In this document: in pieces, positions 30,183 through 52,105 of the stretch
How positions within the stretch are numbered: position 1 is the stretch's first letter
How the letters are laid out: every line of letters starts with the position of its first letter
The notes under the pieces: model-generated
What the model was told of the DNA's origin: nothing
Databases searched by the model: none
The model's input: only the letters and a program-made list of their open reading frames with translations
Origin: Umbelopsis ramanniana AG
Lineage: Eukaryota; Mucoromycota; Umbelopsidomycetes; Umbelopsidales; Umbelopsidaceae
Length of the DNA stretch: 64,000 nucleotides
Assembly (NCBI RefSeq): GCF_025399195.1
Contig: NW_026252088.1
Coordinates: 558,001 to 622,000 of the forward strand
Reading direction: 5' to 3'
Translations under genes and position numbers: made by a program

Positions 30183-31816
30183 ATGTCTGCTCGTATCTTC
30201 ACCACCGCTGCCCGTGCTGCTGCCCGTGCTGCTCAGCCTCGCGTTGCTATGCAACTTGCTCGTCCCATGTCTGTCTTGAGCAAGGCTGTCAAGAGCTCTG
30301 CCATCAAGTCCACTGTAAGTAGTTTGGTGCCGTCCATTTCTTTTTTGATCTGACTTGATCGCTTACTCCTTTACTTGCACAGATCACCCAACAAGTCCGT
30401 GGTTACAAGACTCTTGACTTTGGTGGTACCAAGGAGACCGTCTACGAGCGTGCTGACGTTCCCAGAGAGAAGCTTCTCGAGACCTTCAAGGATGACACCA
30501 TTGCCGTCCTTGGATACGGTCCCCAAGGTCGTGGACAAGCTCTTAACCTCCGTGATAACGGTGTCAACGTTATCATCGGTCAGCGTGAGGGTAAGACCTA
30601 CCAACAGGCTATCGAAGAAGGATGGGTTCCCGGAAAGAACTTGTTCCCCATCTTGGAAGCCACTGAGAAGGCTACCGTTGTCATGAACTTGCTTTCTGAT
30701 GCTTTCCAAAAGGCCATCTGGCCCGATATGCTTCCTCTCTTGACTCCCGGAAAGACCCTTTACTTCTCTCACGGTTTCTCCGTTGTCTACAAGGACCAGA
30801 CTGGCATTATCCCCCCTAAGGGTAAGTACTCGTAGCTTCATTCTTCACGTTCCCTTTACCCCTCTTAACACTAGATTCCATTTTAGATGTCGATGTTGTC
30901 TTGGTTGCCCCCAAGGGTTCCGGTTTCACTGTCCGTCGTCTTTTCCAAGAGGGCCGTGGTATCAACTCCTCTTTCGCCGTTTTCCAAGATGTCTCTGGCA
31001 AGGCCAAGGAGCGCACTATCGCTCTTGGTGTCGGTATCGGCTCTGGTTACATGTATGAGACCACCTTCTACAAGGAAGTCCACTCTGATCTCGTCGGTGA
31101 GCGTGGTGTCTTGATGGGTGCCATCCAAGGTCTTTTCCAAGCTCAATACGAAGTTTTGAGAGCCAACGGTAGGTTTCGTAGATAATCTTGATGGGAAGTT
31201 GGGTATCGGGGAGATCTAGCGGAATTTGAAATACTGATCAACTTTTTGGATACTCTAGGTCACTCCCCCTCTGAGGCTTTCAACGAGACTGTTGAAGAGG
31301 CTACTCAATCCTTGTATCCCCTCATTGGTGAGAAGGGTAAGTCACGATCAACCATTCGTTTTAGTCTGAGATAGCCTGGATCTAACAAGCTCCGGTTTCC
31401 CCTATAGGTCTCGCATACATGTTTGCCAACTGCTCCACAACGTAAGTTGAATTCTATTCCTTCGCTGTATGAAATCTTCCACATACTAAACTCTTTTTAT
31501 CACAGCGCTCAACGCGGTGCTCTTGACTGGTGGAAGCCTTTCTACACTGCCTCTAAGCCGGTTTTCGAGGATTTGTACGAATCCACCAAGAACGGTTCCG
31601 AGACTGCTCGCTCCTTGGACCGCAACTCTGAGCCTGACTACAGAGAGAAGTTGGAGGCCGAACTTGCTGAGATCAGCAACAGTGAAATGTGGAGGTATGT
31701 CATGGCTTCAATACAATCAAAAATTTTTCTCATTTGTTTCTGGCGTGCTAATGTTTGGTTTCACCCTTTACAGAGCTGGTGTCACTGTCCGATCTCTTCG
31801 CCCTGAAAACCAGTAA
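30183..31816 (+). CDS. ILV5: Ketol-acid reductoisomerase (mitochondrial)
   Basis: This enzyme isomerises and reduces acetolactate with NADPH, the step after Ilv2. The presequence MSARIFTTAARAAARAAQPR is rich in Ala/Arg. After an intron (30315-30382) comes ITQQVRGYKTLDFGGTKETV, then the Rossmann motif VLGYGPQGRGQALNLRDNGV. The NADPH domain continues through NLLSDAFQKAIWPDMLP and HGFSVVYKDQ. After further introns the knotted domain follows, with GVGIGSGYMYETTFYKEVHS, DLVGERGVLMGAIQGLFQAQ, MFANCSTTAQRGALDWW and, after the last intron, AGVTVRSLRPENQ, with a stop at 31814-31816. The product is about 400 residues, a class I KARI of fungal type. An in-frame ATG at 30150 would add 11 residues; the internal start gives the cleaner presequence. 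In yeast the enzyme also binds mitochondrial DNA. Confidence 0.96.
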
Positions 31817-32624: not shown

Positions 32625-34696
32625 TCACTGGTCCTTCTTGCCATCGGCGATGACTTTGGATCTTTTGCTTCTTGCACCAATAAGATATCCAATGCTGGCG
32701 GTGGTCAATGACGCAATCGCGACATAGATACCAATGAGATCCCATTGCTGCACCTGCCACCAAGCAAGTTCAGTTTGGATAGGAAGGAGATGAGAGAAGT
32801 CTCCATTCAACGACAATAATGACTCAACATAGTTTGCTGCGTTCTGGGAAGAAATGGATATCATGAATTAAAAATATGAAAGGGAGGATCAATTGCAACA
32901 ACTTTTGATAGGACGAACTGTGCTTACCTTTGCGCCATCAGAGAAGTCATCACCGACCAGGTTTCGAAGTAACGCACGAACCATTCTCAAGTTTTTCAAC
33001 ACACGCTCGTACTTGGTAGGATCAAGAATCTCATGAAGAGCTTCAAGGACCTCCTCTTTAGTGCATGTCAAAGGGTGACGAATCCGAACTCCCAACTCAC
33101 GATCGTGAATACGTATAGCCATATCATTTTGATCAAAAAAGGAAGGAACCTAGGTCGTAGAGGATTTAGTGTTTGAAGTGGGTCGAACAAGTGCAGCGGT
33201 ATACCCAACCATGAACTATACTTACCACAACCATAGGCACAAGCTCTCGAATGGATTCCCAAGGTGAGTTGGCACCGCCGTGAGTAATGAAAAGTTTAAC
33301 ATTTGGGTGTGATAGGACCTCTTCTTGTGAGCAAAGCCAGTCAACGGAATGGATGTACTTGGGGAAGAAGCTAAGGCTCAAATCTTGTGCGGATCCGTTA
33401 GAGTTGGAGTTGTTGGGAACAATAAGCGGTCGCTGAGAATAAGGAATTCTCCAAAGCATATCATAATTACTATAGCGAGGATCTTCGTGCAGATTCTTAA
33501 AGCCCTCCAGAAGAGCCGTCATTGATTCCTTAGTAAATGATCCAGTTGTGCCAAAACTTATATAAATAATAGGACGTTCGGTAGCATTGAGCCATGGACG
33601 AATGTCTTCACAATTTTCGCGATCAATATTAACGTTGGAGACTGCCTCGGGTTTACTCAAAATAGGACCGCTCAGATAGTGATGGGAGCCTGTGAATTGC
33701 GCGTAGTCGAGTCCGACCATATTATTGACAATGAAAGGATTCTTGTTCCATGGGTCTCCCATCTGCTTCACAACAGCCTTTTCATACATCTCCAGTCTGT
33801 TCCAGTGAGCGAAAGTTGTAAGCCCGAGCGGCGCTCCGATAGCAAGACGTTGGACCGCTTCAAACAAGTGAAGCTTAAATCGATAAGGCAGAGATGCAGT
33901 CTGTTTGCGAGACATTCCAGTACCAATAGGCACGGAGAAGAAGTCATATCTCAGCTGGAACCCAGGAAGGTTGACTACCGTAGGGATACCCAAATGATTG
34001 CCAATATCTGTGGCTGCAAAACTGTAGATACCTTGTCAGTAAGCCTCAGTATATACCCAACACTCACATAAAATTCAACCAACCTAGCATAATCGCTGAT
34101 AAGAATATCAGGGCGCTGAACATTGGTAATGTAATCGGTAAGACCATCCTTGAGAGCGGTGGACGATTTTCCAAACATGCACATCATCTATAAAAAGTAA
34201 AAATGTAAAATTTTAAGGTTGAAGATGGTGTTAGATAACGGCAGATCCTCACTCATACCGCTTTGAGATACATACCCCTAGTGTAAGATTGCCTGGGCCT
34301 TCATTAAAAGCCAAGTCTTGAGCGAAGATTGCATAAGTTTCCTGTGAGTGACGCATCGTGTTGCTTAGCGCATGTATTGTGACGAGACTTTGAACCATTA
34401 CAGAGCATAGTACTTACCTCATCACAGACATCCTTCTCGTAGTCACCCAAAGGTATGAATTCCACCAAGGGGTCCTTCTCAAAAGCCTTGGTGTATCCAG
34501 CTCGCTTCATCATGAACATCTTCACATCATATCCTCGAAGCGCTAATTCTTGACCAATGCGGTGTAAAGGTTTAGCATGACCTGGAAATGGGATGGCAGC
34601 CAAAGCAACCAGCTTTCGCTTGTCCTCCAAGGCGACAACTACGGCTAGGAAACAGCACAGCAAAAAGGCTGTTATCGTTCTACTTGAACTAACCAT
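32625..34696 (-). CDS. UDP-glycosyltransferase (UGT/GT1 family), ER membrane type
   Basis: UGTs transfer a sugar from a UDP-sugar to small lipophilic acceptors. The start MVSSSRTITAFLLCCFLAVV is a signal peptide; then KLVALAAIPFPGHAKPLHRI shows the conserved acceptor-domain start with the catalytic His in PGHAKP. A middle exon has PDILISDYAR. The C-terminal donor domain has PIIYISFGTTGSFTKESM, then the UDPGT signature: SQEEVLSHPNVKLFITHGGA, NSPWESIRELVPMVV and FFDQNDMAIR. Near the end there is a transmembrane segment, LIGIYVAIASLTTASIGYLI, and a basic tail (GARSKRSKV), so the enzyme should sit in the ER membrane with a lumenal catalytic part. Introns occur near 32854-32926, 33132-33222 and 34023-34428 (several). 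It lies at the left flank of the P450/PhzF array on the opposite strand. Confidence 0.88.
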
Positions 34697-35367
34697 GGAT
34701 AATATAGAAGATAAACGTGCACCGCGCTTGAGTTCTTTTCAATGTAAATAAAAATGCTTGTGAAATCCCGATAGCTACACAAAAGTTGATAGTGATCACA
34801 ATACAGGAGAGTGCGGTTGCACGAGTGTGAGGATATCTCAGTCTAAAAAAAATGAATAAAAAACTCACTCGAAATCTCAGAAAGCGTAGATACATCTCTT
34901 GTTTCTATCAAGAGGGATCCTAGTTGAATTTTCTAGAAAATATGGATTGTACGTTAGGGGAGAGCATAAGCAGGAAACACAATGGAGGGAATACAAAGTT
35001 TCGGCGTTGCGCCAAGACCGCTCAATGGGTCAACTAGCAACCGTGCCACGACACCATGATGTGATGCTGCCCGTGCCTCACAATGATTTGAACACACTGT
35101 AAATAGAGACTTGTAGCATTTGTACAAAGTAGTGATATACCGCTATTATTTAATCCATTTGATTTGATTTCCCTCAGCATGCTCAAAATAATGCTGCTGG
35201 AGGTCTATTCGTGGCATCAACGTACAAAGTTTGTGTGTTTGTACCACTGTACTGAAGTCTGCTACAAGGCTTTTTTAGAATTCGGCTTTGCTTGATAGCC
35301 TCCATGCGCACTTCCAAGGAAAATTCTTTTTCTTTCTCTTCTTCCATTTGGACTTGGACTATGACAA
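34697..35367. other. Divergent intergenic region, UGT / seven-TM orphan
   Basis: No gene supported. It contains the upstream regions of two divergent genes. Short open frames at 34899-35102 and elsewhere have no recognisable features. Confidence 0.5.
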
Positions 35368-36679
35368 ATGAGCTCGTCTACCGGTGACTTTGTTGCAGGA
35401 TATTTCTTCGTTGGAACAGCCGTCATCGCATGTGTTTTCATCGGCTTGTCCGCATACTTTCGGCCAACACCATTGCGTATTTTTTGTCTTATCAACAATA
35501 TCATGACCATAGCTCAAGCGTCTTGTACGCTATCCTTCTGCTACGGAATGGCCAACATCAAATCCATCGTCATTCTTTTCTTCACCTGCCGACTGGGATA
35601 TGTCACATTAACAGCTTATGAGCTTTTGAAGATCGGAAACCGTATCCAGAAGAACAGATCCTCAGTGACGCGAGCAACCTTATTTTGGGCATTGTCGCCT
35701 GTTGTGGTATTTATTACACATTGTAGAGTTTAAAGTTTGAACATGTTTCTTGCGATTCTAACCCGTGCAACGAAAATAGGTACTGTATGTTATAGCTGAT
35801 GTTGCAGGCATCATAGTGTCTGGCATTAGTTCAACTGGCATCCCGCCTTTCTGGTAAGTCGATAATATGGTCACTTTCCGAATATATGCCCAAGAGCATT
35901 GTGGCATAAAAACTAACACCATTAATTAGGTTATACGTTGTTTCATCATGCCTTGGCCTGGTTCTTGCTGGAGGCTGCAATCTGTTTGCATGGGCTCCGA
36001 TTGTTAAACATTCTTACACGGATCCAGTAACCAAACCTGTAGCTTCTGCTGTGATTTGGTACTTTGTCACTCTTCATCTCATTGTTCCTGGTTTGATAGG
36101 ACAGGTAAATGTGAATGTGGTCTGTGAAACAACGTCAGTTTATTTTCTCTACTGATATTTCTGTCTATACAGTACATTGCTGTCTTCGCCTTAGGAAATG
36201 TCTGGTATCATGTCACATGGATTGTAGTGGAAGGCTGCTTGAGAATATTTTGCCAGGTAAGTGCTTCATCTCTTAATCTCAGCCATGTAATTATTCTACT
36301 AAACAGCCTAATTGTGCGCCTCTAGATTATATTTGGTGTTATTCCTCCAAGGGTATGTAGTATGAAATTGTAGTATTTATTCGTCTGCTTTGAAAAATAG
36401 CACTCTAATTTCCTGCCATGAACAATTTCTCCTATCAATCAGTTCATTTTGGACCCTATGGTAGACTTCATGAAACCTAAGCTTCAGTTACAAGTTACGA
36501 CCGATGATCGACCGAATGGATCGTCTGCGAATTCAAGGTCAACCAACCCACACTTCTTAGGACACTCTCCACTCAGCACGCCGGGCGTTTACAATTCCAC
36601 CATAGCACTGGCTGATGTTGATTATGATAAAGCTAGCTCTATTTATCAGCCATCTAGAGAAGCACAGGCCACTTATTGA
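35368..36679 (+). CDS. Orphan multi-pass (about seven-TM) membrane protein
   Basis: I do not recognise the family. The N-terminus, MSSSTGDFVAGYFFVGTAVI, runs directly into a first membrane helix. Further hydrophobic segments follow: LRIFCLINNIMTIAQASCTL, IKSIVILFFTCRLGYVTLTA, ATLFWALSPVVVF, LYVVSSCLGLVLAGGCNLFA, SAVIWYFVTLHLIVPGLIGQ and VFALGNVWYHVTWIVVEGCL. The order of about seven helices with short loops and a Ser/Thr-rich tail of about 80 residues (from ~36450) resembles a GPCR-like layout. Several very short exons are needed at 35790-36355, including one reading IIFGVIPPR, so the junctions are approximate. A 9-codon upstream frame (35361-35387) overlaps the start and could dampen translation. 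The gene sits immediately upstream of the P450/PhzF array on the same strand. Confidence 0.68.
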
Positions 36680-37397: not shown

Positions 37398-39511
37398 ATG
37401 TCCGTCAGAAGCATAGAAGGGATATACATTTACAGAGGTGTTGAAGCTATCAGTGGCAAACTTGCCCGGCTTTCAGCCTCGGATGCGGTGGGTATTGTGG
37501 CGGGTACGGCGGTCGCTTATTACTTGCTGCAAACCTTTATTTGTGACCCACTACACAACTTTCCGGGCCCTTTCGGCGCAAAATTATCCCGTATTTACGA
37601 ATCCAAAGTTAGAGCAAGTGGTAAAGAATATCTGATCACCGAGGGACTGCACCAAAAGTACGGGAATGTGGTTCGGATTGGTCTGTATCTTAGGCTCATC
37701 TACACCCTGCTTGCGAGCATGCACTAAATTGACTCTGCAGGTCACAATACCCTATCTATAAAGGATCCGGAAGCCATAAGACAGATTTACATGTCAGATA
37801 GATTTGTCAAGTCACCTTTTTATAAAGCTTTGACATTTGATGTAAGTCTGGCCAGTAGACATCGCACTGGAACGAGCTGCTCCCGATGTTAACATCGAAT
37901 TTTTAAGCGAGTACATCAGCTTACATCCACCGCCGACCCAGAGGAACATGCAAGATTCCGAAAGATTATGGCACCTGGATTTTCTCAAGCTCGGTTGGAC
38001 GAGCTAGAAGATGTGATTATGAATTCTGGTGTGGAAGCATTCTTGAAAAAGCTGGAGAGCCAGTATGCCGATAAAGATGTTGTCTGTAATCTTTTCACTG
38101 AGTTTCACTGTCTAGCTTTGGACATTCTTGGAGAACTAGCGTACGGAAAGAGCTTCAATATGATTCAGAGTCAGAGCCATCCATTTACGAAATGGCTGCG
38201 GGTAGGTAATAAACTGTCTGCCTATGCTAAAAGGTCCCTATCTAATTGCGACTTCTAATATAGCAACGACAAACATTGATACCATTGGTAAAGCATCTCT
38301 AGCCTTTCAGATGACTATGAGTTTGTATCTTACACTATTAGAAAATAGTGTAGCACATATCCATCTATCAACGACCATCCTTGGTTGTTGAAGATGCTGT
38401 TTCCGACTGGCTACCGCTCGTTCATGAGGATTCGGAAAGTAAGTATTAGGCAAGGAATAGCCAAAACCCATAGAGGTTAGTGCATTGTATGGCAATAGAG
38501 CTAAAATTCCCAAGTTTGGAGATGATTGTCTGGTAGATAGTGCAAAGAACAAAACCAACACAAGACGAGACTTCACGCAAATCCTCCGTAAAGCTATGAA
38601 AAATTGTGATCCAAATCAGCACATGTCTCCAACAGAATGTAGTCTGGCTTGCTTCATGCTTATAGTAGCGGGAACAGATACAACAAGCAACTCATTGTGT
38701 TTTACGCTGTACCTTTTGGCAAAGCATCCAGAAGTGAAGGATAGGCTATTCAATGACCTTGTGCGTCTCATGCCAGATAGTCAAGCGGTCTTGAAGTAGG
38801 TGTGATGTTATAAACCTGGAGTCTAATGCATATATGCTAACAACTCAAAAAAGATACAAGGATATTCGTAAGCAGGCTTTACCTTACTTGTGGGCTATCA
38901 TTATGGAAGCGACCAGAATGTTCCCAGCTGTGCCTGGAGGTCTTCCCAGAGTTTGTCCAGCAAGTGGTGAGACCATTGCGAATCGGTATATACCAGGAGG
39001 GGTAAGTCATTGGAGTTTGATAGATACCCTACCGGTGGATTTAATAGTAATTTTGACAAAACATCAATAGACCATCGTGCAAGTACCAACGTGGTCCATA
39101 CACCACGACGCCAGTATCTTTCCTGAACCATTCACTTTCATGCCAGATAGATGGCTACAGCTAGAGTCTAATGAACTTGCAAAGTATCACCTTGCTTTTT
39201 CACTTGGCCCACGAATGTGTGCGGGAAAAAAGTATGTATTGCCGTCTTAGTGGCTTCTCTCAATCAATCCACTAATTCTCATCTATCCTTCAGCTTGGGA
39301 ATGATGGAGATGACGCTCACACTGTGTCATTTGCTAAGGAGATATGATGTTCGTCTAAGCAACCCAGAAGAAAAAATGGACCTTTTGCAAACATTTGTTG
39401 CTAAACCAGGTGAGTGAACCGTACTGATAGTCATAACGCAAGCTGTAACTAAATTGTTGAATTACAGCCTCCATGACCACTAACGTGTACATTTCTAAGC
39501 GCCAAAAGTGA
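37398..39511 (+). CDS. Cytochrome P450 (array copy 1)
   Basis: A microsomal-type monooxygenase with about ten exons. The N-terminus has a hydrophobic helix (AVGIVAGTAVAYYLLQTFI) and the proline hinge FPGPFGAKLSRIYESK. Diagnostic elements are intact: EHARFRKIMAPGFSQARLDE (C-helix), I-helix motif AGTDTTSN near 38670, ExxR in MEATRMFPAVPGGLPRV near 38905, the PERF-like region MPDRWLQL, and the heme ligand loop FSLGPRMCAGK near 39206-39231 (FxxGxRxCxG). The final exons read LGMMEMTLTLCHLLRRYDV and end NVYISKRQK, with the stop at 39509-39511. A 24-nt microexon lies at 38264-38287. The next exon after ~38440 must begin at TTTGGAGATG, since other acceptors open stops. Length is roughly 490 residues. 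The CYP family cannot be assigned by eye; substrate is unknown. Confidence 0.88.
38264..38287 (+). other. 24-nt microexon of P450 copy 1
   Basis: Flanked by AATATAG and GTAAAGC, it encodes QRQTLIPL between the F/G-region exons. The same phase-0, 24-nt exon occurs in all four P450 genes of the array. Confidence 0.75.
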
Positions 39512-39800
39512 AGGGATATATGTGAACTATTCTACACTATAGTGATAGCTAATGTCAAACACTCAAAAGTTTCAGTAGTAGAAATATGTGTCTAGTACAC
39601 TCTTTTACGCTAGGGTCAAATAATAGAAGATATCGCAAAATTTGAACCGCCTGATTGTTGGCTTGGGCTGCTTGTCCAATGAGTACTCCGCTGATGTATC
39701 GAAGAGTTGAGAGAGCTGACTTGATTTGAGTCATAGCTCGCAGTTTATTACAAATCACGCTCACATTCTTTTTACTACCACACTTGACATCAAAGCAAAC

Positions 39801-40780
39801 ATGACTAGATCGTACCCATTCTATCAAGTCGACGCATTCACAGAAACTAAACTTGGTGGTAACCCCTGTGCCGTGTTTTTGAATGCAGACGACTTGAGCG
39901 ACGCGACTATGTTGGCAGTAGCCAAAGAGGTCAGGAAATCGAATAATATGCCTTTGTAAACAACTGTAATATATTTAATTGTTTATTCAACTCTTTCGTT
40001 TGTTAGATGAACCAATCCGAGTCAGCGTTTGTCGTAAAATCGTCAGTGGCAGACTTTGGAGCACGATATTGGACCACGGCCGAGGAGATACCTCTGGCTG
40101 GACATCCCACGGTGGCTACTATCTATACACTGATTCAGGCCGGTCTTATCGTTCTCAACAGTGAACATAAACGAGTGACGTTGGAATTGAGAGCTGGTGT
40201 GATTCCAATCGACATTTATTCCGCAAAAGACGGCAAGTTGGAGAGAATCGTGATGACCCAAGTACCTCCTCGCTTCCTATCTGAACATGATCCATCGGTC
40301 ATTTGCCCTATCTTCAATTTGACACCGGAAGATCTGATAGAAGGTGTTCCTATTCAAACTGTGTCAACTGGCACCCCCCAGTTGATGATCCCGCTCAAGT
40401 CAGAAGAGAGTCTGCGAAAAGCCCGCATTTCCGATATCGACGCCTATGTGAAGTACAAAGGCCAATCTGATTTCTTCTCGCCTCACTTATTCATTACGAA
40501 GGGTATTTCCGATGAAGCATCGGTATTTGCAAGGCACTTTGGAGTTCCCCCTGATCTTATGGAGGATCCAGCCACCGGATCAGCGACCGGAGGTATGAGT
40601 GCTTTCTTGGTAAAGTATGGACTTGTGGACAAGACGACCTTCATTGCTGAGCAGGGTCATTGGATGGGACGGCCAAGCACCATTCATGTTGAGGTCATAA
40701 AGGATGAAAAACGGAATATCAAGGACGTAAAGATTGGAGGCACGGCTGTTTTGGTGTTGAAGGGTGAATTGCTGTTATAA
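39801..40780 (+). CDS. PhzF-family isomerase (array copy 1)
   Basis: PhzF-fold proteins are cofactor-free isomerases or epimerases related to diaminopimelate epimerase; PhzF itself isomerises a dihydro-hydroxyanthranilate in phenazine synthesis. Exon 1 reads MTRSYPFYQVDAFTETKLGG and NPCAVFLNADDL. After a 77-base intron (39930-40006), exon 2 reads MNQSESAFVVKSSVADFGAR, where Glu of SES corresponds to the catalytic Glu45 of PhzF. IPLAGHPTVATIYTL carries the conserved GHPT, and EDPATGSATGGMSAFLVKYG the Asp and the glycine-rich loop of the active site. The length is 301 residues, usual for the family. No signal peptide is seen, so it should be cytosolic. It lies 289 bases after P450 copy 1 and 290 bases before copy 2, on the same strand. 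The substrate is unknown. Confidence 0.9.
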
Positions 40781-41070
40781 GAGTTATGCCTGGTATTTTT
40801 GTGGATTTTGTTAGTTTGCGACGTGGGTACTGTTCTGAATGAATGTTTTTTCCGTTTGTTTGAAAAAGAGAGAGTATGATGCTTGCTACCACTTTTTAAT
40901 AAAATGGCTTTTAATTTTCGTGCGTCTGCAGCCAAATGTACGACAATGTAGCAGATCACAAGGCAGGCTTACTGGGAGGTATAAGTTTCCCACTCATATG
41001 CCAATTCATAACTCTTTCCTCTTTGATCTCTTTTGCAACATATACTGTCCCTACTCACACTTTATTCTCA

Positions 41071-43210
41071 ATGGAAAACTACATAAACAGAGAGAAGGTG
41101 AACGAAACCATCCAAATTCTATTACACACCATATCGCATCTCAGTACAGCCGAAATTGTAGGCTACACGGCGGGCGCTTTGGCAGCTCGCTACATTATTG
41201 CAACGTTTGTGTTGGATAAACTCTCAGATATACCAGGACCATTTGCCGCAAAGCTTACACGGTTTTACGATGTCAAAATGAAGGCTTCTGGCAAGAGATA
41301 TGTGTTGATCGACGAACTTCATAAGAAGTACGGCAAAATAGTCCGCACGGGTAATGGGAGATGGTGCTATCTTGATTTGCAGTTAGCTCAGCCAGCCATT
41401 GATGATTAGAATTCCGATTTAGGGTATGACACTGTGTCCATTCACGACGCAGAAGCCGTCAAGCAAATCTATGGAGGCGAGAAGTTTCGAAAGGCTCCTT
41501 ACTATAGAGTCTTTCTTTTCAACGTGAGGAAAAAGAAAAATGTGGAGTAATTTATGCGTTCTTGAACTTACCCTTGCCGTTTCTAGAATACTTCCAATTT
41601 GATCGAGACCAGCGATCCCGTCCAACATGCCAGATACCGACGCATTTTTTCACCTGGATTCAGCCAGGCAACTCTAGACAGCCTTGAAGTCTTAATAATG
41701 GAATCAGGAATAATTGCTCTGATGAATAAGCTCAATGAAAAATACGCCGACAAACCTGTTATCTGCAATATCTTTAACGAGTTCCATTTGATGGCGTTCG
41801 ACATTCTGGGTGAACTAGCATATGGCAAAAGTTTCAATATGATTCAGAGAGAATCGCACCCTTTTCCAACATGGATAAAGGTAAAAAATGAATTAACATG
41901 GTTGTTGTTTGTTTTATCTTAATACTAACATTCGACTTGTGTGCGGGAACTTAGACTAGATCAACGATGATGCCGCTTGTAGGTCACCGATTTTGTAATG
42001 AAAACACAGCTCTACATTAACGTAACTCACATATCAAACTTGTAACCAGTGTACTACCTTTCCCGAGATCAACCACTATCCAAAGCTTTTAAGCATTTTC
42101 TTCCCGAAATCAAACGGAGCCACCATGGATATCATCAAGGTATGCCAAAAGAGAATGAGTGATTTGATATATTTTAAACCAACGGCTCTGCTGTTCTACT
42201 AAGCGCCCAATCCAGTTTTCTGAGAAATCATTAGGTGCTCGATTAGCGGACAAGGCAAATAATAGAAGAGATTTTACGCAATTGATGGTTGAAGCCATGA
42301 AGGCAGACAAAGAAGGCAATTATTTGACCGCTTCCGAAAGTCAGGTTGCATCTGTTGTTCTGCTCGTAGCTGGAACCGACACAACAAGCAACACCATGAC
42401 GTTTGTTGCATTTTTGCTGAGCAAGCATCCTCACGTCCAAGAGCGTTTGTTTCAGGAGCTGGAGGAGGCCATGCCAGACAGAAACGCAACGATCAAGTTA
42501 GTAATATCCATCAGCATAATCATGCAGAAGCCGCCACTAATTTTCGTCACAGTTACAAGGATGCTAAAAAAGAAAAGATACCATACCTATGGGCTGTCCT
42601 TATGGAGGTGACTCGTATATACCCTGCTGTACCAGGAGGTTTGCCTAGAGTTACACCGAAAGGAGGTGCAGTCATTGCTGGACAATTCATTCCCGAGGGG
42701 GTAAGTGCCACGTTTGATATTGACACTTGTGCTACATTTTCTAAGTGCTCATTTCGTAGACTGTCGTTGAGGTACCAACGTGGTCTCTCCACCATGATCC
42801 AGCTCTATTCGCCGATCCTTTCGAGTTCAGGCCCGAGAGATGGTTAGGAGACGATGCCGAAGAGCTGTCGAAGAATCACCTTGTCTTTTCAGTTGGTCCA
42901 CGAATGTGCGCCGGCAAAAAGTAAGTCATAAGCTGAATGTCGAGAAATCTCTTGTTGTGCGCTTATTTAAATAACAATTACTGATAGCCTGGCTATGATG
43001 GAAATGACCTTGGCCATGGCTCACTTTTATCGACGCTTTGCTGTAACACTTGCTGATCCTAACGAAACCATGCCTTTAATGCAACAATTCATTATGAAGC
43101 CAAGTAAGTCGATTGGATGCTTTCGGTGGAGCCCCATTTCTTGCTAATTTTTGGACTTCCATATAGAATCTCTGCAGTTGAACGTCTATTTGCGAAGCAG
43201 GGATCATTAA
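41071..43210 (+). CDS. Cytochrome P450 (array copy 2)
   Basis: The start MENYINREKVNETIQILLHT was chosen because it aligns with the starts of the other copies; an in-frame ATG at 40936 would add a hydrophobic 45-residue extension that has no counterpart. After TAEIVGYTAGALAARYIIAT comes the hinge DIPGPFAAKLTRFYDVKMKA. The C-helix region is HARYRRIFSPGFSQATLDSL. The I-helix motif AGTDTTSNTM (near 42370), ExxR (EVTRIYPAVPGGLPRV, near 42605), PERF-like RPERWLGDDAEE after splicing, and the heme loop FSVGPRMCAGK (42890-42921) are intact. The last exon is LQLNVYLRSRDH. Microexon at 41955-41978. Length is about 495 residues. Closest by eye to copies 1 and 3. Confidence 0.88.
41955..41978 (+). other. 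24-nt microexon of P450 copy 2
   Basis: Flanked by AACTTAG and GTAGGTC, it encodes TRSTMMPL in phase 0, equivalent to the microexon in the other three copies. Confidence 0.75.
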
Positions 43211-43711
43211 GCGCAGTGTGAAAAGAGTTCATTTCGACTGGTGTGAAACCAATTGATACTGAACGGCAGCTCATAGTTTAACCATCTGTTAGAATCTTCT
43301 TACCATTTTCTGATTGCCAAAATTACATTCCATCCCATTATCCATTTCCATTCATTATACATATGGCTACTGTCTAATACATTATTATTCTGGGTGTTAC
43401 ATTAAAAGCTATCTTTACTTGGCCATACATCCATACCAACTGGTTATACTTATTGATCATAGCGGTTAATCATATTTGCCGCTACGGACCGCTTTCAGAA
43501 CCATCAAATTTGGCCGAAAAGCATTGCATCAAAGGTGTATTTGCTTCGTTTTACATTAAATTCGTCTGAGACGTCATGGCAAATGAAACGGGTAAATCAT
43601 GGGGCGGCGGTGAATATTTCAACCGTGAATAAGCGAAATTTTTCCGTGCCAAAAGAATAATAAATACAGTGGGCCCGTCTGACTCTCAACCACCTTTAAA
43701 CAAACAAAAAT
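43211..43711. other. Intergenic region between the two P450-PhzF-P450 modules
   Basis: This 501-base gap separates P450 copy 2 from copy 3 and marks the likely junction of the duplicated modules. No gene is seen. An AATAAATA element about 50 bases before the copy 3 start may serve as a TATA-like box. Confidence 0.5.
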
Positions 43712-45873
43712 ATGCAGATCGAGAATTCTTTCAACCTCGAAAAGCTAAGCGACACCGCCCAAAAGTTGCTTAGTACCATACGCGAAGCGAACAAAATGGA
43801 GGTTGTGGGTGTCATTGCTTGTGCTTTGACGGCCCAGTATGTTATCAATACCTTTTTGCTGGATCGCCTCCGCGCCATACCCGGTCCGTTCGTGGCTAAA
43901 CTATCGCGCTTTTACGATGTCAAACTAAAGGCATCTGGCAAGGCGTGGCTGCTGATCGACGAGCTTCATAATAAATACGGCAAAGTGGTTCGAACAGGTA
44001 AGATTTCATATACCACCAGCGACAGAGGCATACCTGCCGTGCTCACTTTACCTATTTAAGGCTATAATACTGTGTCGATCCGAGATCTAGACGCCGTCAA
44101 GCAAATATATGGAAATGAAAGGTTCCGCAAGTCGTCTTTTTATGATGCGTTCGTTTTCAATGTGAGAAAAGAAAACCTTCTTGTTCAACATATTCGATGC
44201 TCATACACTGACTTCACATCACTTACCTAACAGGGGGCTCATAACATGTTTGCGACCACTGTCCCCACAGATCACGCCAGGTACCGCCGCATATTAGCAC
44301 CGGGATTCAGCCAGGCAACCCTCGACGGTCTAGAAGATGTCATAATGGACTCAGGTATTCTTGCTTTAATGGACAAATTCGATACAAAGTTCGCAAATCA
44401 GCATGTCGTCTGCAATTTGTTTGACGAATTCCATCTTCTGGCATTTGATATTCTTGGCGAAATGGCCTATGGCAAAAGCTTTGATATGATTAAGTTACAA
44501 TCTCATCCATTTGCCGACTGGCTGAAGGTACAAACACATTCTATTTGTAGATACATGATTTATTTATGTACTAATGCTCCAACAACCTCGTAAAGACACG
44601 AACCAAGCAGATGCCAGTTGTAAGTGACGCGGATGACCAGGCACTTTGAAGGTTGGCATCGAGATACTTACCTTGCATTCGATGCAGACGACCACTTTTC
44701 CTGGTATAAACCGTTATCCCCGGTTATTAGGCCTGTTGTTTCCTCGAGCAGCAAAAGCTACCGAAAATATCTTCGACGTAAGCACTGAAAAGGCGATCAT
44801 AAATTAACGGGTTATATCAATAATTCTGACTCCTTGCTTGAAACCAGTTCTCGAAAAAGTCAATGGAGGATCGGTTAGCTGATAAGGACAACACAAGAAG
44901 AGATTTCACGGCACTGATGTTGGCGGCTTTGGATTCAGACAAGAAGTCTAATTACTTGACCGTGCCCGAGAGCCAGGTAGCATCCGTCATGTTGATAGTT
45001 GCCGGAACCGACACCACTAGCAACTCCATGACCTTCATTGCGTTCTTGTTGGGTAAACACCCCAAAGTCAAAGAACGTCTGTTCCAGGAATTGGTTCAAG
45101 CCATGCCTGATAAGAACTCAACCTTGAGGTTCGCTTTCACACTACTGGCCCAACAGAATATGCTTTAACCCGTACTTACCGATTTCTATCATAGATATAA
45201 GGATGCTAGAAAGGATCAGTTGCCATATCTGTGGGCTGTCATGATGGAAGCGACTCGTTTGTATCCTGCCGTGCCTGGTGGTTTACCTAGAGTGACTCCA
45301 AAGGGAGGCGAAATTATCGGTGGACAGTTCATTCCTGAAGGAGTAAGTTTATTTTCTGGATACAATAGGGTCATCATTACTTTTGGTTAACAGGTTTACC
45401 TCTTAGACGATTGTCGAAGTGCCAGCGTGGTCAATCCAGCACGATGCGAGCATATTCGAAGAGCCTTTTGAATTCAAGCCAGAAAGGTGGTTAGCCGACG
45501 ACTCTGAGGAGTTGGCCAAGCACCACCTTCTGTTCTCATATGGTCCACGTATGTGTGCTGGCAAGAAGTAAGTAGTAGACTTAGGGATGACGCCTGCAGT
45601 GGCCGTAATATTAATCACCATTGAACAGCTTGGCTATGATGGAGATGACCTTGACTATGGCTCACTTGTTCCGACGGTACGACTTTAACTTTGCTGATCC
45701 AAGCGAGACAATGCCTTTGGTGCAGGCATTCATAATGAAGCCACGTAAGTAAATCGTCAGTTTGCTGACGGAGCTCATCTTCGTCTCTGCCTGATCTCTG
45801 TATACTTACCAAATGTACACCTTTACTAGGATCTCAAGAGTTGAATGTCTACCTGCGTAGCAGAGATCAATAG
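43712..45873 (+). CDS. Cytochrome P450 (array copy 3)
   Basis: It starts MQIENSFNLEKLSDTAQKLL, followed by a membrane helix (VVGVIACALTAQYVINTFLL) and the hinge AIPGPFVAKLSRFYDVKLKA. The first intron follows VVRTG (donor near 43998). The C-helix region is HARYRRILAPGFSQATLDGL. The I-helix motif is AGTDTTSNSM (45003 onward), ExxR is in MEATRLYPAVPGGLPRV (near 45247), and the heme loop is FSYGPRMCAGK (45536-45568). The last exon is ELNVYLRSRDQ, with the stop at 45871-45873. All catalytic motifs look intact. Microexon at 44596-44619. About 495 residues. It opens the second module and resembles both copy 2 and copy 4. Confidence 0.88.
44596..44619 (+). other. 24-nt microexon of P450 copy 3
   Basis: Flanked by CGTAAAG and GTAAGTG, it encodes TRTKQMPV in phase 0, as in the other copies. 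Confidence 0.75.
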
Positions 45874-46175
45874 ATCTATTGTAGCTGTCTGGGAATTTTT
45901 AAACCCGCTAAACAACGCGACGCTTTAATTAGTCTTCGATTGTACCTTCGATCTGAATATAAATTTTGCCATCGTGCAATTATCAATATATCTGCCCTCA
46001 GTAGAAGACGACAAGCTCTCGCAACTATTTTGTCATTGTCAATCGAGGTTGTATTGTGGCCTTCAATTGTAACGCTAGAGATGACGCATACTGCGCAAGT
46101 ACAAACATGAGTCACGCAGGACATCAGTTAAACATGAAAATAATTCAAATTTCCCACAAGTTGGAGATTGTCACC
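45874..46175. other. Intergenic region, P450 copy 3 to PhzF copy 2
   Basis: A 302-base gap matching in size the 289-base gap between P450 copy 1 and PhzF copy 1. I see no additional gene. Confidence 0.5.
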
Positions 46176-47154
46176 ATGGCAAAATCATATCCATACTATC
46201 AAGTTGACGCCTTTACCCAGGTACGGCTTGGTGGTAACGCTTGTGCTGTGTTTCTAGACACTGATGACATGGACGACACAACAATGCTGGCCGTTGCTAG
46301 AGAGGTATAGTCTATATACTCTTACCTCTTTCAAATGAATTGAAAACACCGCTTTCTCAACTACGGAGCATGCCAATTAGATGAATTTATCTGAATCGTC
46401 TTTCGTAGTCAAGTCACGCGTAGCAGATTATGGAGCAAGGTACTGGACGACGGTTGCTGAAATTCCCATGGCGGGGCATCCCACAGTGGCAACTATCTAC
46501 GCTCTGATTCAGGCTGGGCGGATCGAAATCCACACTGAGCACCAACAGATCACATTGGAGTTGAGAGTAGGTATAATTCCAATCGATATCTATTCGACAA
46601 AGGATGGAAAAGTTGAGAAGATCATGATGACTCAGAAGCAACCAGAATTTCTATCCATTCACAACCCATCTATCATCTGTCCACTGTTCAATTTGACTCC
46701 TGATGATATACTGGAAGGAGTTCCAATCCAAACGGTATCGACTGGCACGCCACAGGTGATGTTTCCGCTCAAGTCCGAAGCAAGCTTGAGGAAAGTGCGC
46801 ATTGCCGAGCCCGAAGCGTACACTCAGTACAGGACGCAATCCGACTTCTTCTCGCCTCATTTCTTTATTTGCGTAGGCATCTCTGAAGGCGCCTCGACGT
46901 TTGCAAGGCACTTTATGCCTCCACCCAACCTGTCCGAAGACCCTGCTACTGGGTCCGCTACTGGAGGAATGAGTGCTTACTGCACCAAGTACAAGCTGTT
47001 GGACAAGAAAAAATTCATTGCAGAGCAGGGACATTGGATAAGTCGCCCTAGTAAAATCCATGTAGAGGTAGAAAAGGATACAGGAGGCGAGACTAAGTAT
47101 GTCAAAATTGGAGGGCAAGCGGTCCTAGTGCTTAAGGGAGAGCTGTTATTGTAG
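46176..47154 (+). CDS. PhzF-family isomerase (array copy 2)
   Basis: This is a close paralogue of the copy at 39801, of the same length (301 residues) and with the single intron in the same place. Exon 1 starts MAKSYPYYQVDAFTQVRLGG. Exon 2 (from 46381) begins MNLSESSFVVKSRVADYGAR with the catalytic Glu in SES; IPMAGHPTVATIYALIQ and EDPATGSATGGMSAYCTKYK carry the other active-site loops. The two copies look about two-thirds or more identical by eye, with the same C-terminal VLVLKGELLL. Differences cluster in MPPPNLS and in the KIHVEVEKD stretch. The start at 46176 is preferred over an upstream in-frame ATG (46056) because it aligns with copy 1. Its place between P450 copies 3 and 4 mirrors that of copy 1. 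Confidence 0.9.
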
Positions 47155-47627
47155 GAAGTTGTTCCATTACCAGTAGGGTACATTTACCTTGAATTCTTTT
47201 ATGAGCTTGATAAACGTATGAACCTTCTCTTTGAAGCTATGAGTGTTTTCAGTGAAGTATACAGCAATGTGCGGCCCTGAAATCAAAGTGGATCTAACTG
47301 CGCGCATGCCCGAGTTTCTTGAAAGGCAGTCGATTTGTCCGTAATTTGTGGAGCCATATTCCCTTCGGCTATGGACTTGTGGTAAATCTACAATTGATGA
47401 GAACATATTAAGCGAGGATTATTCAACTTAGAAGTGAGGAAAAGTTTGAAAATTCGAATGAAATAGGTGAAAATATTTTCTGGGAATGGTCAATGATGTT
47501 TCATTGTTACGGGCCGGCGTGACAACCTTTTCTTGCACAAAATTTGAGCCACTAAATTTCCCGGTGAAATTTGACTTAAATACTTCTTATGATCGCACTC
47601 ACCACCTTGCTACTTCAACATAAAAAG
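47155..47627. other. Intergenic region, PhzF copy 2 to P450 copy 4
   Basis: No gene is seen. The region contains a TTAAATACT element about 50 bases upstream of the copy 4 start, similar to the AATAAATAC before copy 3. Confidence 0.45.
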
Positions 47628-49769
47628 ATGCAAGCTCAAACCTATCCAAGTGATGCAATCAGCAAGACTATTACGACTTGTTTAAATGCCATTGATCAGC
47701 TCGATCGAATGCAAGTACTAGGCATCGCGGCTGGTACCTTTACAACGTACTACGTTACCAAGACGTTTTTGTTGGATCCTTTGAGGAACATACCAGGCCC
47801 ATTCGTAGCCAAGTTATCACGTTTTTACGAAGGTTTTTTGAAAGCTTCTGGGAAACAATGGATTATCATTCATGGTCTTCATGACAAATATGGGACAATA
47901 GTTCGTACAGGCAAGTAGCCATCTAAGTTTACATGTAAATGCGCCAGTTGCTATCCATCCCACCAACATGCAGTACCTCTAGGATACAACTCTATTTCTA
48001 TCAGAGATCCGGATGCTTTCAAACATATCTATGGTACAGAGAGGTATAAGAAGACCCCGTTTTACCAGGCATTTTCGTTCAACGTATGTTTCAATTTGCT
48101 TAGTGAGCATGGGGTTTTTCAAAACGTTTACCATCAATTTGGGCATTAGGGTGTCAAAAACTTGTTTACAGCCATTGATAGTGCAGAACACGCAAGATAT
48201 CGTCGCATTTTAGCACCTGGATTTAGCCAAGCATCACTCGATGGCCTTGAAAACGTGATTATGGATTCAGGTGTACTAGCGCTGCTCAATAAGTTTGACT
48301 CAAAATACTGCAACAAGGCAGTCCCATGTAATCTATTTACTGAGTTTGGTTTACTTTCTTTTGATGTTATTGGAGAATTGGCATATGGAAAGAGTTTTGA
48401 AATGATTAAGCTTGATTCCCATCCATTTCCGGGCTGGCTGAAGGTAGGTGTTGAGGTTTGACTGAACAGGTCGTTCTAACTATGGGTAGCTGATCTTTTT
48501 GAATTTAGGCGCGATCTCATATGTTTCCCTTGGTACGTACAATTAATCATGTGAATGTAATAGCCATTGATGCTGATCACTATTTTAATTTCCAGTTGAC
48601 CACCTATCCATCTGTAAACCGCTACCCAAAGGTTCTTGACGCCCTCTTTCCTAATGCCGCAGCTGCCATGCAAAATATATTAAAGGTGAGTTGATAGCAA
48701 AGAAATCAAACAAAAGGTATGCTATTAATGAACGCTCCCCAGTTTGCGTCTGATTCTTTAGAAGAGCGTGCTAATGAAAAGGTGACTGGTAGACGGGACT
48801 TCACACAACTCATGTTGGAAGCCATCAATTCTACAAATGGAAATGATCGCCTAACTTCAGAAGAAGGCCATGTCACATCCGTTATGTTGGTTATAACCGG
48901 TACCGTAACCACAAGCACTATGCTAACATTCATTACCTATGTTGTGAGCAAGCATCCAGATGTGAAGGAAAAGCTATTCAAAGAGCTGATCAATGCAATG
49001 CCGGAAAAGGATACAACTATCAGGTTGGTTAGCTACGCTTGTCCCGCTCTCTACAAATTGGATATTGCTAATCAACATTATATAATAGCTACAAGCATGC
49101 TCGCAAAGATTGCCTCCCTTACCTATGGGCCATAATTATGGAAGTCAGTCGAATGTATCCAGCTATTCCTGGCGGCTTACCTAGATTGACGCCTGATGGA
49201 GGCGACATCATTGCAGGTCAATTCATTCCAGGGGGAGTAAGTGGGTTCAAGTCAAATTCGCAAGCATACACGCTAAGTGTTCTAATACAAAATTTAGACC
49301 GTTGTGGATGTGCCTATTTGGTCTATCCATTACGATGCCAGAGTGTTTAAGGATCCTTTCGAGTTTAAGCCAGAAAGATGGTTAGGCGAGGATGTTGAAA
49401 ATTTGATGAAATACAATGTGGTGTTTTCGGCTGGTCCCCGCATGTGCGCTGGTAAAAAGTAAGGTCTTTTTATCTATGAAATAACTATTGCAAAGGTATG
49501 AGGAGCTAAGTGATAGCAATTATTAGCCTGGCTATGATGGAGATGACTCTAGCACTTGCTCATCTCTATCGGCGATATGGCGTTTCCTTGGTGGAGCCGG
49601 AGGAAGATATGGAGATAACTCAGCAGTTCGGACTCTTACCCGGTAAGCCCACAACCAAACAATATCGATCTGATTGTGGCGTAGAAGAAGAAAGTGATAC
49701 TCATTACACCAATATGCAAATATAGCTTCTAGGCAGATGAATGTGTACATCAAGAGCAGGGATCATTGA
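47628..49769 (+). CDS. Cytochrome P450 with altered I-helix (array copy 4)
   Basis: It starts MQAQTYPSDAISKTITTCLN (an in-frame ATG 13 codons upstream is possible), with a membrane helix region (VLGIAAGTFTTYYVTKTFLL) and the hinge NIPGPFVAKLSRFYEGFLKA. The C-helix region is HARYRRILAPGFSQASLDGL. ExxR (MEVSRMYPAIPGGLPRL, near 49140) and the heme loop FSAGPRMCAGK (49425-49459) are intact, so heme binding is expected. The I-helix motif, however, reads ITGTVTTSTM instead of VAGTDTTSN: the conserved Asp is Val (codon GTA, 48905-48907) and the preceding Ala is Thr. The product ends NVYIKSRDH, with the stop at 49767-49769. Microexon at 48509-48532. There is no frameshift or premature stop, so the gene looks expressed but possibly changed in chemistry. 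Confidence 0.87.
48509..48532 (+). other. 24-nt microexon of P450 copy 4
   Basis: Flanked by AATTTAG and GTACGTA, it encodes ARSHMFPL in phase 0, as in the other copies. Confidence 0.75.
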
Positions 49770-50125: not shown

Positions 50126-50632
50126 TTATGCTTCGGTAAACTCTTTCTTTCTTCTCAGGGACATGATGCAGAACGTGGATGAGGAGCAGATCCATACTAC
50201 AATCCCAATAGCTAATACAGCGGCGCATATGCAGGATAGGACGAGGGAGAACCACAAGTTGAAATACATTGCTCCCTGCAAAAGAGGTAGCGATAGCCAG
50301 TAATTGTGACCAAGCTGGTGGTACATTTCGAAAATGGTGTATCCCGTCAAAGTTTTGAACCATCCAAAGCCAAGGCCCAGTAAAACGACATTTGCGATCC
50401 AACCAAGCAATGCAACAACGCCGACAAGCGCTGCCATGAGATCTCCGCAACCTGACATCGCCGAGACAAGCAGTACTGCATTGATAACTAGTTGGCCCAC
50501 ACCATATTGCATAGCTTGATCTTCCATGGTACGGTGATCATATCTTGAAATCCCAAGGCTCCATACTACAACAAACGCCAGTGGAACTAATGCTACAGAG
50601 CAAGAACAAGAGGTGCTTGAGTTCTGTGACAT
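50126..50632 (-). CDS. Orphan four-TM membrane protein, 168 residues
   Basis: A single frame beginning MSQNSSTSCSCSVALVPLAF and ending in a charged tail, SLRRKKEFTEA. Four hydrophobic segments are visible: VALVPLAFVVVWSLGIS, LVINAVLLVSAMSGCGDLMA with LVGVVALLGWIANVVLLGLG, and FSLVLSCICAAVLAIGIVVW. Between helices lies GWFKTLTGYTIFEMYHQLGH. I do not recognise the family; the layout is MARVEL- or Sur7-like. It lies at the right edge of the P450/PhzF array on the opposite strand, so it may be unrelated to it. Confidence 0.65.
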   Translation of the reverse strand: MSQNSSTSCSCSVALVPLAFVVVWSLGISRYDHRTMEDQAMQYGVGQLVINAVLLVSAMSGCGDLMAALVGVVALLGWIANVVLLGLGFGWFKTLTGYTIFEMYHQLGHNYWLSLPLLQGAMYFNLWFSLVLSCICAAVLAIGIVVWICSSSTFCIMSLRRKKEFTEA

Positions 50633-52105
50633 GGAGGATAGCGACTGCGAAAACGAAGTGAAAGCGGCATCAATGCGTCAGAGCAGCTTTATATAGCCTA
50701 AATATGATAGTCGGCTTTGTCGTGTCGGACAATCGTGTGCGACAGCAAGTCGACTTTGCCAGTTGTATATAAGCTTCTGAAAAATCAGTTGCTTACAAGT
50801 GAGTGGTTCTGATAACTTTTTTTTTCTTTCCCATAAGAGTCATGATGGCACCGCGGTGGTTATTGCCGTTATTGCGTTACTTATCATTGCTATTGTTTTG
50901 CCTTTCAATTTTCTAAACGATGGACTGCTGCGCAAAGGACTCACAAGACTCAGTAGTGTGATCTTCAAAAATGGAATGTGGCTGCTATATTAAAGTCAAT
51001 TTACTGCGGGTTTATGTTGCAGTAGCGAGGGTGGGGCATGTCTTGGCGATCATTTATTCATAAAACTATCACATTTAATGCATAGGTGATGGTGATGTGC
51101 GCATAACGAAAACGGTAGCATGCGCATTTGTGAACGTAGCTGACATGGTCCTTTGCTCGTGACACAAAGCTTTCAACCGTATGTTATGTGGGTATTGGGT
51201 TGCTTACTACTTACACTTTTTCATTGCACATTGCCAAATGGTAGGTGGAACGATAAACTATCTTGTTAAGGTATTATTTTTTGTTGGATCATGAATGATT
51301 TAGTGAAGTATAGTTTTACAGATTTCAGCACACCTTATCCCTCGTATAAACGAAAAAAATAAAGATATCCGGCAATGTTCAGCGTGAGGAGAGGGTTAGT
51401 GAGTGCACAAAAATATATACTAATTGAAAACATCTCCATAAACACCGTTTCGGTTAAGTGTGGTGCGCTGAAACGTAAAGTATACCATAGTTTGGCCGGG
51501 GTGTTTTCAAGGAGACTTGCGTACCTGACTTTAATGACGTCGGTGTGTGAAATTTACAGTACCGGGCAAGAGGAGCAAAGCGAGGGCACGATTGAGAAAG
51601 GAAATGAGCTTTTAAGACAAAAACAATCAAATATTTTTGTACGTTTTGATAAAAGTTCGGAATGAGGCTGGGATGTGCTCTTGGCATATCGATGTCTTAT
51701 AGACTGTCTTTGATTATGTCTTTGCTTCGGCCAGTAGTGGTGACAATGTTGTGGTCGAAAACATTGGCAATCTTTATATGGCGCCTGTCGATGCATTTTC
51801 AAGTAGCAGTGAGCAAAGGGCAGTGGTGTTAACCCAGTATCTGCAAACTACCGCTTGGCCATCCTAATTTGTCGCTTGTCACCAAACTAGTACAAGTTGT
51901 ACGACCTTTCGTCACTTAATCGAAAACAAATTTTTCCTGTCTTTGCAGCTTCCTCTTCTTCTTTTTCTCTATAACTAGCAGCATCTTTTCCCTCTAAAAC
52001 ATATAGTTGATTTTCTCCACTCACTCTATCATATTATCACCTTTCACATCTATACATATCTCGTAGTTTATACTATCACTTCGTGCTAGATATCCAAGCC
52101 TAGCT
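50633..52105. other. Long region without a supportable gene
   Basis: A TATA-like element (TGTATATAAG, about 50763-50772) is followed by a hydrophobic open frame (50841-50990) that lacks an ATG in frame, so I do not call it. A 96-codon frame at 51375-51665 has no recognisable feature. The right end is T/C-rich and is the likely promoter of the sensor gene at 52106. Confidence 0.45.

What the first reader, a model, noticed from the sequence alone, without database searches (positions are those of the whole stretch)
37398..49769. Tandemly duplicated P450-PhzF-P450 module: a candidate undescribed pathway
Seen: six genes on one strand with nothing else between them, in the order P450, PhzF, P450, P450, PhzF, P450. 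The two PhzF copies have equal length and one intron at the same site. The P450s share intron positions. Gap sizes repeat: 289/290 bases in the first module and 302/473 in the second, with 501 bases between modules. Known: PhzF-fold enzymes rearrange small hydroxylated ring compounds, and P450s hydroxylate or cleave them. Inference: the module oxidises a substrate, isomerises the product with PhzF and oxidises it again, and the whole set has been duplicated and begun to diverge. No backbone enzyme (PKS, NRPS, terpene synthase) is in the window, so it may act on a precursor made elsewhere or on an environmental compound. I know of no described fungal cluster with this arrangement.
Basis: partly seen in the sequence, partly recalled or inferred. 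Interest (0 to 1): 0.82.

Follow-up and report, generated by a model that had tools for sequence, protein, structure and literature searches.

The report
Fungal P450 and PhzF gene cluster
A soil fungus carries four related oxidising enzymes interleaved with two copies of a bacterial-type isomerase; the cluster is real, its chemistry is unknown, and it did not arise by copying one three-gene block.

Summary
The six genes are real: P450, PhzF, P450, P450, PhzF, P450, all on the + strand, with intact reading frames. The window is Umbelopsis ramanniana AG (three annotated proteins match at 100%). The two PhzF genes are the only ones found in this 22.8 Mb genome. The four P450s are the only members of their family found there, apart from one decayed fragment.

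The proposed history is not supported. A duplicated P450-PhzF-P450 block is rejected on the P450 tree (AU p 0.0007). The tree fits serial duplication: P450_1 splits first, then P450_4, then P450_2/3. The spacers share no detectable sequence. The copies are old (synonymous sites saturated).

The PhzFs are nearest to Chloroflexota PhzF (up to 61%) and share a fungal intron, which suggests bacterial gene capture. P450_4 and its three orthologues have lost the I-helix acid (V/I for D); ten of ten relatives keep it.

A joint pathway is plausible but unproven. In U. isabellina, PhzF and its nearest P450 lie on different contigs in both assemblies. PhzF in Umbelopsidales was already reported, product unknown. 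Five paper searches with PhzF among the terms listed no such cluster.

The parts
37398..39511 (+). P450_1 (group A), 513 aa, 10 exons; equals annotated K450DRAFT_219426 (P0131)
   Evidence: in frame, 100% to P0131; Pfam PF00067 for P0131; AGTDTT, EATR and FSLGPRMCAG motifs
39801..40780 (+). PhzF_1, 300 aa, exons 39801-39929 and 40007-40780; catalytic motifs MNQSE (44-48), GHPT (75-78), EDPATGS (229-235)
   Evidence: (PF02567); nearest P0001, 93%
41071..43210 (+). P450_2 (group B), 512 aa, 10 exons
   Evidence: in frame; 91% to P0124 of Umbelopsis sp. AD052
43712..45873 (+). P450_3 (group C), 514 aa, 10 exons; annotated protein K450DRAFT_219433 (P0121) is shortened at its end
   Evidence: 100% to P0121 over 462 aa
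46176..47154 (+). PhzF_2, 300 aa, exons 46176-46304 and 46381-47154; long-branch copy; annotated K450DRAFT_219444 (P0008) lacks most of exon 1
   Evidence: end branch 0.31 against 0.05-0.06 for PhzF_1
47589..49769 (+). P450_4 (group D), 526 aa, 10 exons, first intron GC-AG; I-helix TGTVTT instead of AGTDTT
48905..48907 (+). Codon (GTA, Val) at the place of the conserved I-helix acid in P450_4
   Evidence: V/I in 4 of 4 group D proteins, D/E in 117 of 124 aligned P450 rows
39930..40006 (+). Intron of PhzF_1 (77 bases, GT-AG), same site as in PhzF_2
46305..46380 (+). Intron of PhzF_2 (76 bases, GT-AG)

Best explanation
It is a lineage-restricted fungal oxidation/isomerisation cluster in Umbelopsis ramanniana. 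Shown by sequence: four P450s of one family, old serial tandem duplicates, interleaved with two paralogues of a PhzF-fold isomerase whose nearest bacterial relatives are from Chloroflexota and whose catalytic motifs are intact. Inferred history: a bacterial PhzF was captured by an Umbelopsis ancestor. It came to lie beside a P450. A PhzF-P450 pair was duplicated (PhzF_1 with the ancestor of P450_2/3, PhzF_2 with P450_4). P450_2 and P450_3 then split in place, with P450_1 older than all of these. Inferred chemistry: the acid-bearing P450s (1-3) hydroxylate or epoxidise a small, probably cyclic, carboxylic acid. PhzF binds the carboxylate through its GH and GS residues and uses Glu48 to move a proton across the new double-bond system. 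P450_4, lacking the I-helix acid, performs a later or different step, not a standard fast hydroxylation. The acid-free P450_4 and the fast-evolving PhzF_2 would form a second, diverged branch. A membrane anchor is my reading of the hydrophobic N-termini, not a prediction made here.
For: Gene models and motifs. P450 topology (A,(D,(B,C))) is the best tree and three alternatives have AU p 0.0007, 0.0007 and 0.011. PhzF: of the 8 named entries among the listed hits after the fungal ones, 7 are Chloroflexota and 1 is 'bacterium', and of 80 bacterial loci fetched 61 are labelled Chloroflexota. The clade that holds the window's PhzFs and U. isabellina has support 99/98, and 100/99 with P0009. Active site: the passages of PMC4586147 that I read name Met41-Asn42-Leu43-Ser44-Glu45, Gly73-His74, Glu207-Asp208 and Ala210-Thr211-Gly212-Ser213; the window has MN(L/Q)SE, GH and EDPATGS in the same order and neighbourhood. 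Many named P450s outside Umbelopsis are benzoate 4-monooxygenases or pc-bph, 26-32%, so both enzyme families hint at small aromatic-type acids. Acid loss in 4 of 4 group D proteins. dN 0.20-0.47 while dS is 2.8-3.2 or undefined suggests constraint.
Against: No substrate, expression or chemistry data. In U. isabellina the PhzF (INT43_002794; NQZ79_g2499) and the nearest family P450 (INT43_000251; NQZ79_g4399) lie on contigs of different length in both assemblies. No 6-8-base word is shared by at least 5 of 6 upstream regions. PhzF_2 has no visible orthologue although P450_4 has three, which the pair-duplication history does not predict; clustering at 90% may hide some. The place of PhzF_2 on the PhzF tree is unresolved (p 0.124 and 0.267). 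(A+D, B+C) is rejected by AU (0.011) but not by the SH test (0.086), and the P450 tree carries a warning about long outgroup branches. The P450s are below 40% to CYP53, so the substrate class is a weak guess. No P450 was found beside PhzF in 80 of 80 bacterial loci (fungal-type HMM, flanks of at most 6 kb, no positive control).
Confidence: 0.4

Rival explanations
1. A P450-PhzF-P450 three-gene module was duplicated in tandem as one block.
For: Order and shared introns; two PhzF copies.
Against: Required P450 pairs A+C and B+D rejected jointly (AU p 0.0007) and, weakly, singly (p 0.036, 0.045). No homology detected between spacers.
Confidence: 0.05
2. A P450 tandem array that happens to include PhzF: neighbours by duplication, with no joint pathway.
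For: P450 arrays are common in this genome, for example seven haem-region matches on C27 between 113576 and 140719 and four on C47. PhzF and the P450 are on different contigs in U. isabellina. No shared upstream word.
Against: Both PhzF genes found in the genome lie inside this one array, each flanked on both sides by a member of the same P450 family. The arrangement outlasted divergence with saturated dS.
Confidence: 0.35
3. A detoxification or catabolic route for plant-derived or environmental aromatic acids, not a biosynthetic route.
For: Many named P450 relatives are benzoate 4-monooxygenases. U. isabellina removes 2,4-D with P450 involvement (PMC5773638, title and start of abstract in a listing only). 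No backbone enzyme among the 26 ORFs scanned.
Against: Identity to the benzoate 4-monooxygenases is only 26-32%. No ring-cleavage or transporter gene lies inside the cluster; the nearest MFS match is about 6 kb away.
Confidence: 0.15
4. The cluster makes phenazines.
For: PhzF name and catalytic motifs.
Against: No PHZA_PHZB hit, but the control was silent, so this is inconclusive. Only two chorismate-binding loci, the number expected for ordinary folate and tryptophan synthesis (the assignment is recalled). PDB ranking puts YddE-like proteins above true PhzF.
Confidence: 0.02

Closest known systems
PhzF, trans-2,3-dihydro-3-hydroxyanthranilate isomerase of Pseudomonas (PDB 1u1v, 1t6k)
   Same: Same Pfam family PF02567; catalytic Glu, Gly-His and Asp-Pro-Ala-Thr-Gly-Ser motifs in the same order
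   Different: Sequence match is far weaker (E 1e-20) than to the 3edn and YddE structures (E 7e-33, 2e-31); no phz partners seen, inconclusively; eukaryotic gene with an intron
PhzF genes gained by fungi from bacteria (Candida parapsilosis, Saccharomycotina, Ustilaginomycotina; PMC2459174, passages read)
   Same: Bacterial PhzF captured by fungi, function unknown
   Different: There the donors named are proteobacteria or unknown; here the nearest relatives are Chloroflexota. The passages shown mention no P450 linkage
PhzF of Umbelopsidales (PMC7928374, passages read)
   Same: Same gene; the paper notes PhzF in Umbelopsidales, Endogonales and other fungi with unknown product
   Different: The passages shown mention neither the P450 neighbours, the duplication, the acid loss nor the Chloroflexota affinity
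CYP53 benzoate para-hydroxylases
   Same: Largest named group among P450 hits outside Umbelopsis, by name only
   Different: Only 26-32% identity, below the 40% family rule (rule recalled)

Membership tests
PhzF family (PF02567) | Pfam match over the curated cut-off | tested here: met
   PhzF_2 exon 2 149.7 bits, PhzF_1 exon 2 140.2 bits, cut-off 27
PhzF family (PF02567) | Catalytic Glu in MNLSE, Gly-His, Glu-Asp-Pro-x-Thr-Gly-Ser | tested here: met
   present in both copies; PhzF_1 has MNQSE, seen in no other of the 274 rows (22 of them did not fit the first pattern, and some proteins enter twice)
DHHA isomerase of phenazine synthesis | Isomerises DHHA | not testable with these tools
   Needs enzyme assay
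DHHA isomerase of phenazine synthesis | Other phz genes in the genome | tested here: inconclusive
   no PF03284 hit but no control genome rang; only two chorismate-binding loci
Cytochrome P450 superfamily | Haem motif FxxGxRxCxG and ExxR | tested here: met
   4 of 4
Cytochrome P450 superfamily | I-helix (A/G)Gx(D/E)T(T/S) | tested here: not met
   Met in P450_1-3; not met in P450_4 and its three orthologues (TGTVTT, TGTITT, TGTVTT, TGSVTT). The motif is usual, not strictly defining
CYP53 benzoate 4-monooxygenase | At least 40% identity to members (rule recalled) | tested here: not met
   P450_3 as query: best 33% outside Umbelopsis, and 26-32% for entries named benzoate 4-monooxygenase or pc-bph
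Gene captured from Chloroflexota | Fungal clade nested inside Chloroflexota with other fungal PhzF outside | tested here: inconclusive
   among rows that were picked as nearest relatives (80 kept of 308); midpoint root; no Dikarya or Endogonales PhzF in the tree
Conserved gene cluster | Linkage kept in other species | tested here: inconclusive
   Three P450 orthologues (A, C, D) share one contig length in Umbelopsis sp. PMI_123, and two (C, D) in another U. ramanniana entry; in U. isabellina PhzF and P450 are on different contigs. PhzF linkage outside the window's genome could not be seen

The most novel reading that the evidence does not exclude
A bacterial PhzF isomerase captured by an early-diverging fungus was wired into a family of P450s. 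It was then duplicated with one of them, and that branch evolved a P450 without the I-helix acid that does non-standard chemistry after the isomerisation. Together they would be a fungal route to rearranged, oxidised ring acids that has not been described.
Probability: 0.3. Interest if true: 0.68.

Novelty: new variant of a known kind. Interest (0 to 1): 0.46.

Why it matters
[quoted passage not shown] A cluster in which PhzF sits among four members of one P450 family gives a concrete place to look for the substrate. The acid-free P450_4 clade, with orthologues in three other Umbelopsis entries, is a natural experiment on proton delivery in P450s.

Tried and rejected
Rejected: block duplication of P450-PhzF-P450. 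Gap sizes as evidence. My first model of intron 5 of P450_1, corrected to 38439-38514 after comparison with P0131. Pseudogene status of the six genes: all frames are intact.

Led nowhere: shared upstream word. P450 beside bacterial PhzF, none in 80 of 80 loci within the held flanks. PhzA/B search, control silent. CYP53 passages in PMC4164535 gave no motif to test. PMC8070225 does not mention PhzF in its main text. Passages of PMC6592952 gave no family assignment. The YN00 estimate failed in 7 of 7 pairs; NG86 dS was undefined in 5 of 7 and 2.8-3.2 in 2. PhzF_2 timing stayed unresolved.

Selections: the P450 tree used 8 of the 108 listed non-Umbelopsis hits as outgroup; the second PhzF tree used 16 chosen bacterial-type rows of the 88. 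Hit lists showed the best 120 of 7826, 189 and 1125 proteins. P0009, counted with the fungal clade, has no named source.

Not done: no DNA of other Umbelopsis genomes was read, since none is held; other-species statements rest on protein hits and contig lengths, and clusters at 90% identity hide members.
Full report
What is there. The window lies at 558001-622000 of contig C2 of a 22.8 Mb assembly. It is Umbelopsis ramanniana AG: window P450_3 matches K450DRAFT_219433 at 100% over 462 aa, P450_1 matches K450DRAFT_219426 and PhzF_2 matches K450DRAFT_219444 at 100%. Six genes occupy 37398-49769, all on the + strand. Splicing by hand, checked by script, gives six intact proteins. The four P450s have nine introns each, with identical lengths for exons 2 to 10. 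The two PhzFs are 300 aa with one intron after codon 43. Two of the public gene models differ from mine: P0121 stops early and P0008 lacks most of exon 1.

Not chance. A Pfam search of the whole genome finds PhzF only here, four exon matches making two genes. A search with P450_3 finds strong matches only in this cluster, plus one decayed fragment on contig C14 (70% over 44 residues); other P450s of the genome match at 22-39%. The genome has other P450 tandem arrays, such as seven haem-region matches on C27, so tandem P450 growth as such is ordinary here.

How the copies arose. Identities are 66% for P450_2/3, 58.5% for 3/4, 55% for 2/4, 50-54% for P450_1 with the rest, and 72% for the PhzFs. 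With 8 outgroup and 10 other Umbelopsis P450s, the tree is (E,(A,(D,(B,C)))), where A, B, C and D are window P450_1, 2, 3 and 4 with their orthologues, and E is the U. isabellina-type P450. Supports are 86/83, 93/95 and 93/93, none of them starred, and the tool warns of long outgroup branches. Forcing A+C and B+D together, as a duplicated three-gene module needs, costs 32.6 log units (AU p 0.0007). Pairing by halves gives the same p, and (A+D, B+C) gives AU p 0.011 but SH p 0.086. The constrained (A,(D,(B,C))) is the same as the free tree. Tested one at a time under the mixture model, A+C and B+D give p 0.036 and 0.045. The simplest story for the gene order is duplication of a PhzF-P450 pair, then a local split of P450_2/3. 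The PhzF data neither confirm nor refute this: PhzF_2 sits on a branch of 0.31 and its place relative to U. isabellina is unresolved. The upstream and spacer stretches have no detectable similarity to each other. Synonymous sites are saturated in 7 of 7 pairs, so these are old copies.

Origin of PhzF. In one search (best 120 of 7826 shown) eight Umbelopsis-like entries and the unnamed P0009 come first; the rest match at 55-61%, and of the 8 of them with an organism name 7 are Chloroflexota and 1 is 'bacterium'. PhzF_2 gives the same picture at 53-58% (best 120 of 1125 shown). Of 80 bacterial loci kept from 308, 61 are labelled Chloroflexota. The fungal rows form one clade with P0009 (SH-aLRT 99; 100/99) among Chloroflexota rows. 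The intron at the same site in both copies shows that the gene is at home in a fungal genome. Limits: the bacterial rows were chosen as nearest relatives, the root is a midpoint, and no Dikarya or Endogonales PhzF was included. Repeated bacterial gain of PhzF by fungi is known (PMC2459174, passages read). PMC7928374 (passages read) already reports PhzF in Umbelopsidales. P0001, a 300 aa full-length relative at 93%, comes from a contig of only 1,100 bases, so it probably derives from a transcript; this is inference.

Catalytic features. Both PhzFs keep the motifs that PMC4586147 (passages read) assigns to catalysis: Glu of MNLSE, Gly-His, and Glu-Asp-Pro-Ala-Thr-Gly-Ser. PhzF_1 alone has MNQSE. 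The P450s keep haem and ExxR motifs. P450_4 and its three orthologues (another U. ramanniana entry, PMI_123, U. vinacea) have V or I where 10 of 10 distinct group A, B, C and E proteins have D. In an alignment of 124 rows (the 120 listed hits plus the four window proteins, two of which are also among the hits) 117 have D/E; the other seven are these four and three with G or T. That the acid helps deliver protons for oxygen activation is recalled. So P450_4 may be slow, use another proton path, or do other chemistry.

Do they work together? For: interleaving of both genomic PhzFs with one P450 family, signs of constraint on the copies, and a shared hint of small aromatic acids. Many named P450 hits outside Umbelopsis are benzoate 4-monooxygenases at 26-32% (best of any name 33%, from Neoconidiobolus and Collybiopsis among others), below the 40% family rule (recalled); PhzF acts on a cyclic amino acid. 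Against: in U. isabellina the two are on different contigs in two assemblies. In PMI_123 three P450s (A, C, D) share a contig length, but no PhzF could be tied to it because the protein database clusters at 90%. No common upstream word was found. Flanking genes look like housekeeping or unrelated genes: ketol-acid reductoisomerase, a TPP enzyme, a UDP-glucosyltransferase-like gene, an MFS transporter, a FYVE protein, Ku and arrestin-like (26 ORFs scanned in all).

Literature. Nine searches were made. Five of them held PhzF among the terms (12, 35, 39, 50, 51). Their listings, cut at 10-25 titles, showed no fungal P450-PhzF cluster; the library holds open-licence papers only.

Verdict. The cluster is a new variant of a known kind, with an unusual bacterial-type isomerase and an acid-free P450 clade that deserve assay.

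Noticed in passing
L115:4476-4634 (G000:C14:307000-316900): Decayed fragment of a group C-like P450 exon 6 with an internal deletion, far from the cluster and about 20 kb from another P450 array on C14.
   Followed up: partly
window 27876-29084 (-) and 30359-31182 (+): A TPP enzyme that reads like acetolactate synthase (name recalled) lies beside ketol-acid reductoisomerase; two branched-chain amino acid genes side by side.
   Followed up: no
window 40013-40015: PhzF_1 has Gln in place of the Leu of MNLSE, seen in no other row; its 93% relative P0001 keeps Leu.
   Followed up: partly
window 47911-47982: First intron of P450_4 needs a GC-AG boundary; the three paralogues have GT-AG at the same site.
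   Followed up: partly
window 33169-34035 (-): UDP-glucosyltransferase-like ORF about 3 kb upstream of the cluster; could be a tailoring gene, not tested.
   Followed up: no
window 50129-50677 (-) and 35365-35730 (+): Two small ORFs that look hydrophobic, without Pfam match, flank the cluster on its two sides.
   Followed up: no
G000:C27:113576-140719: Array of seven P450 haem-region matches on one strand, larger than the present cluster.
   Followed up: no
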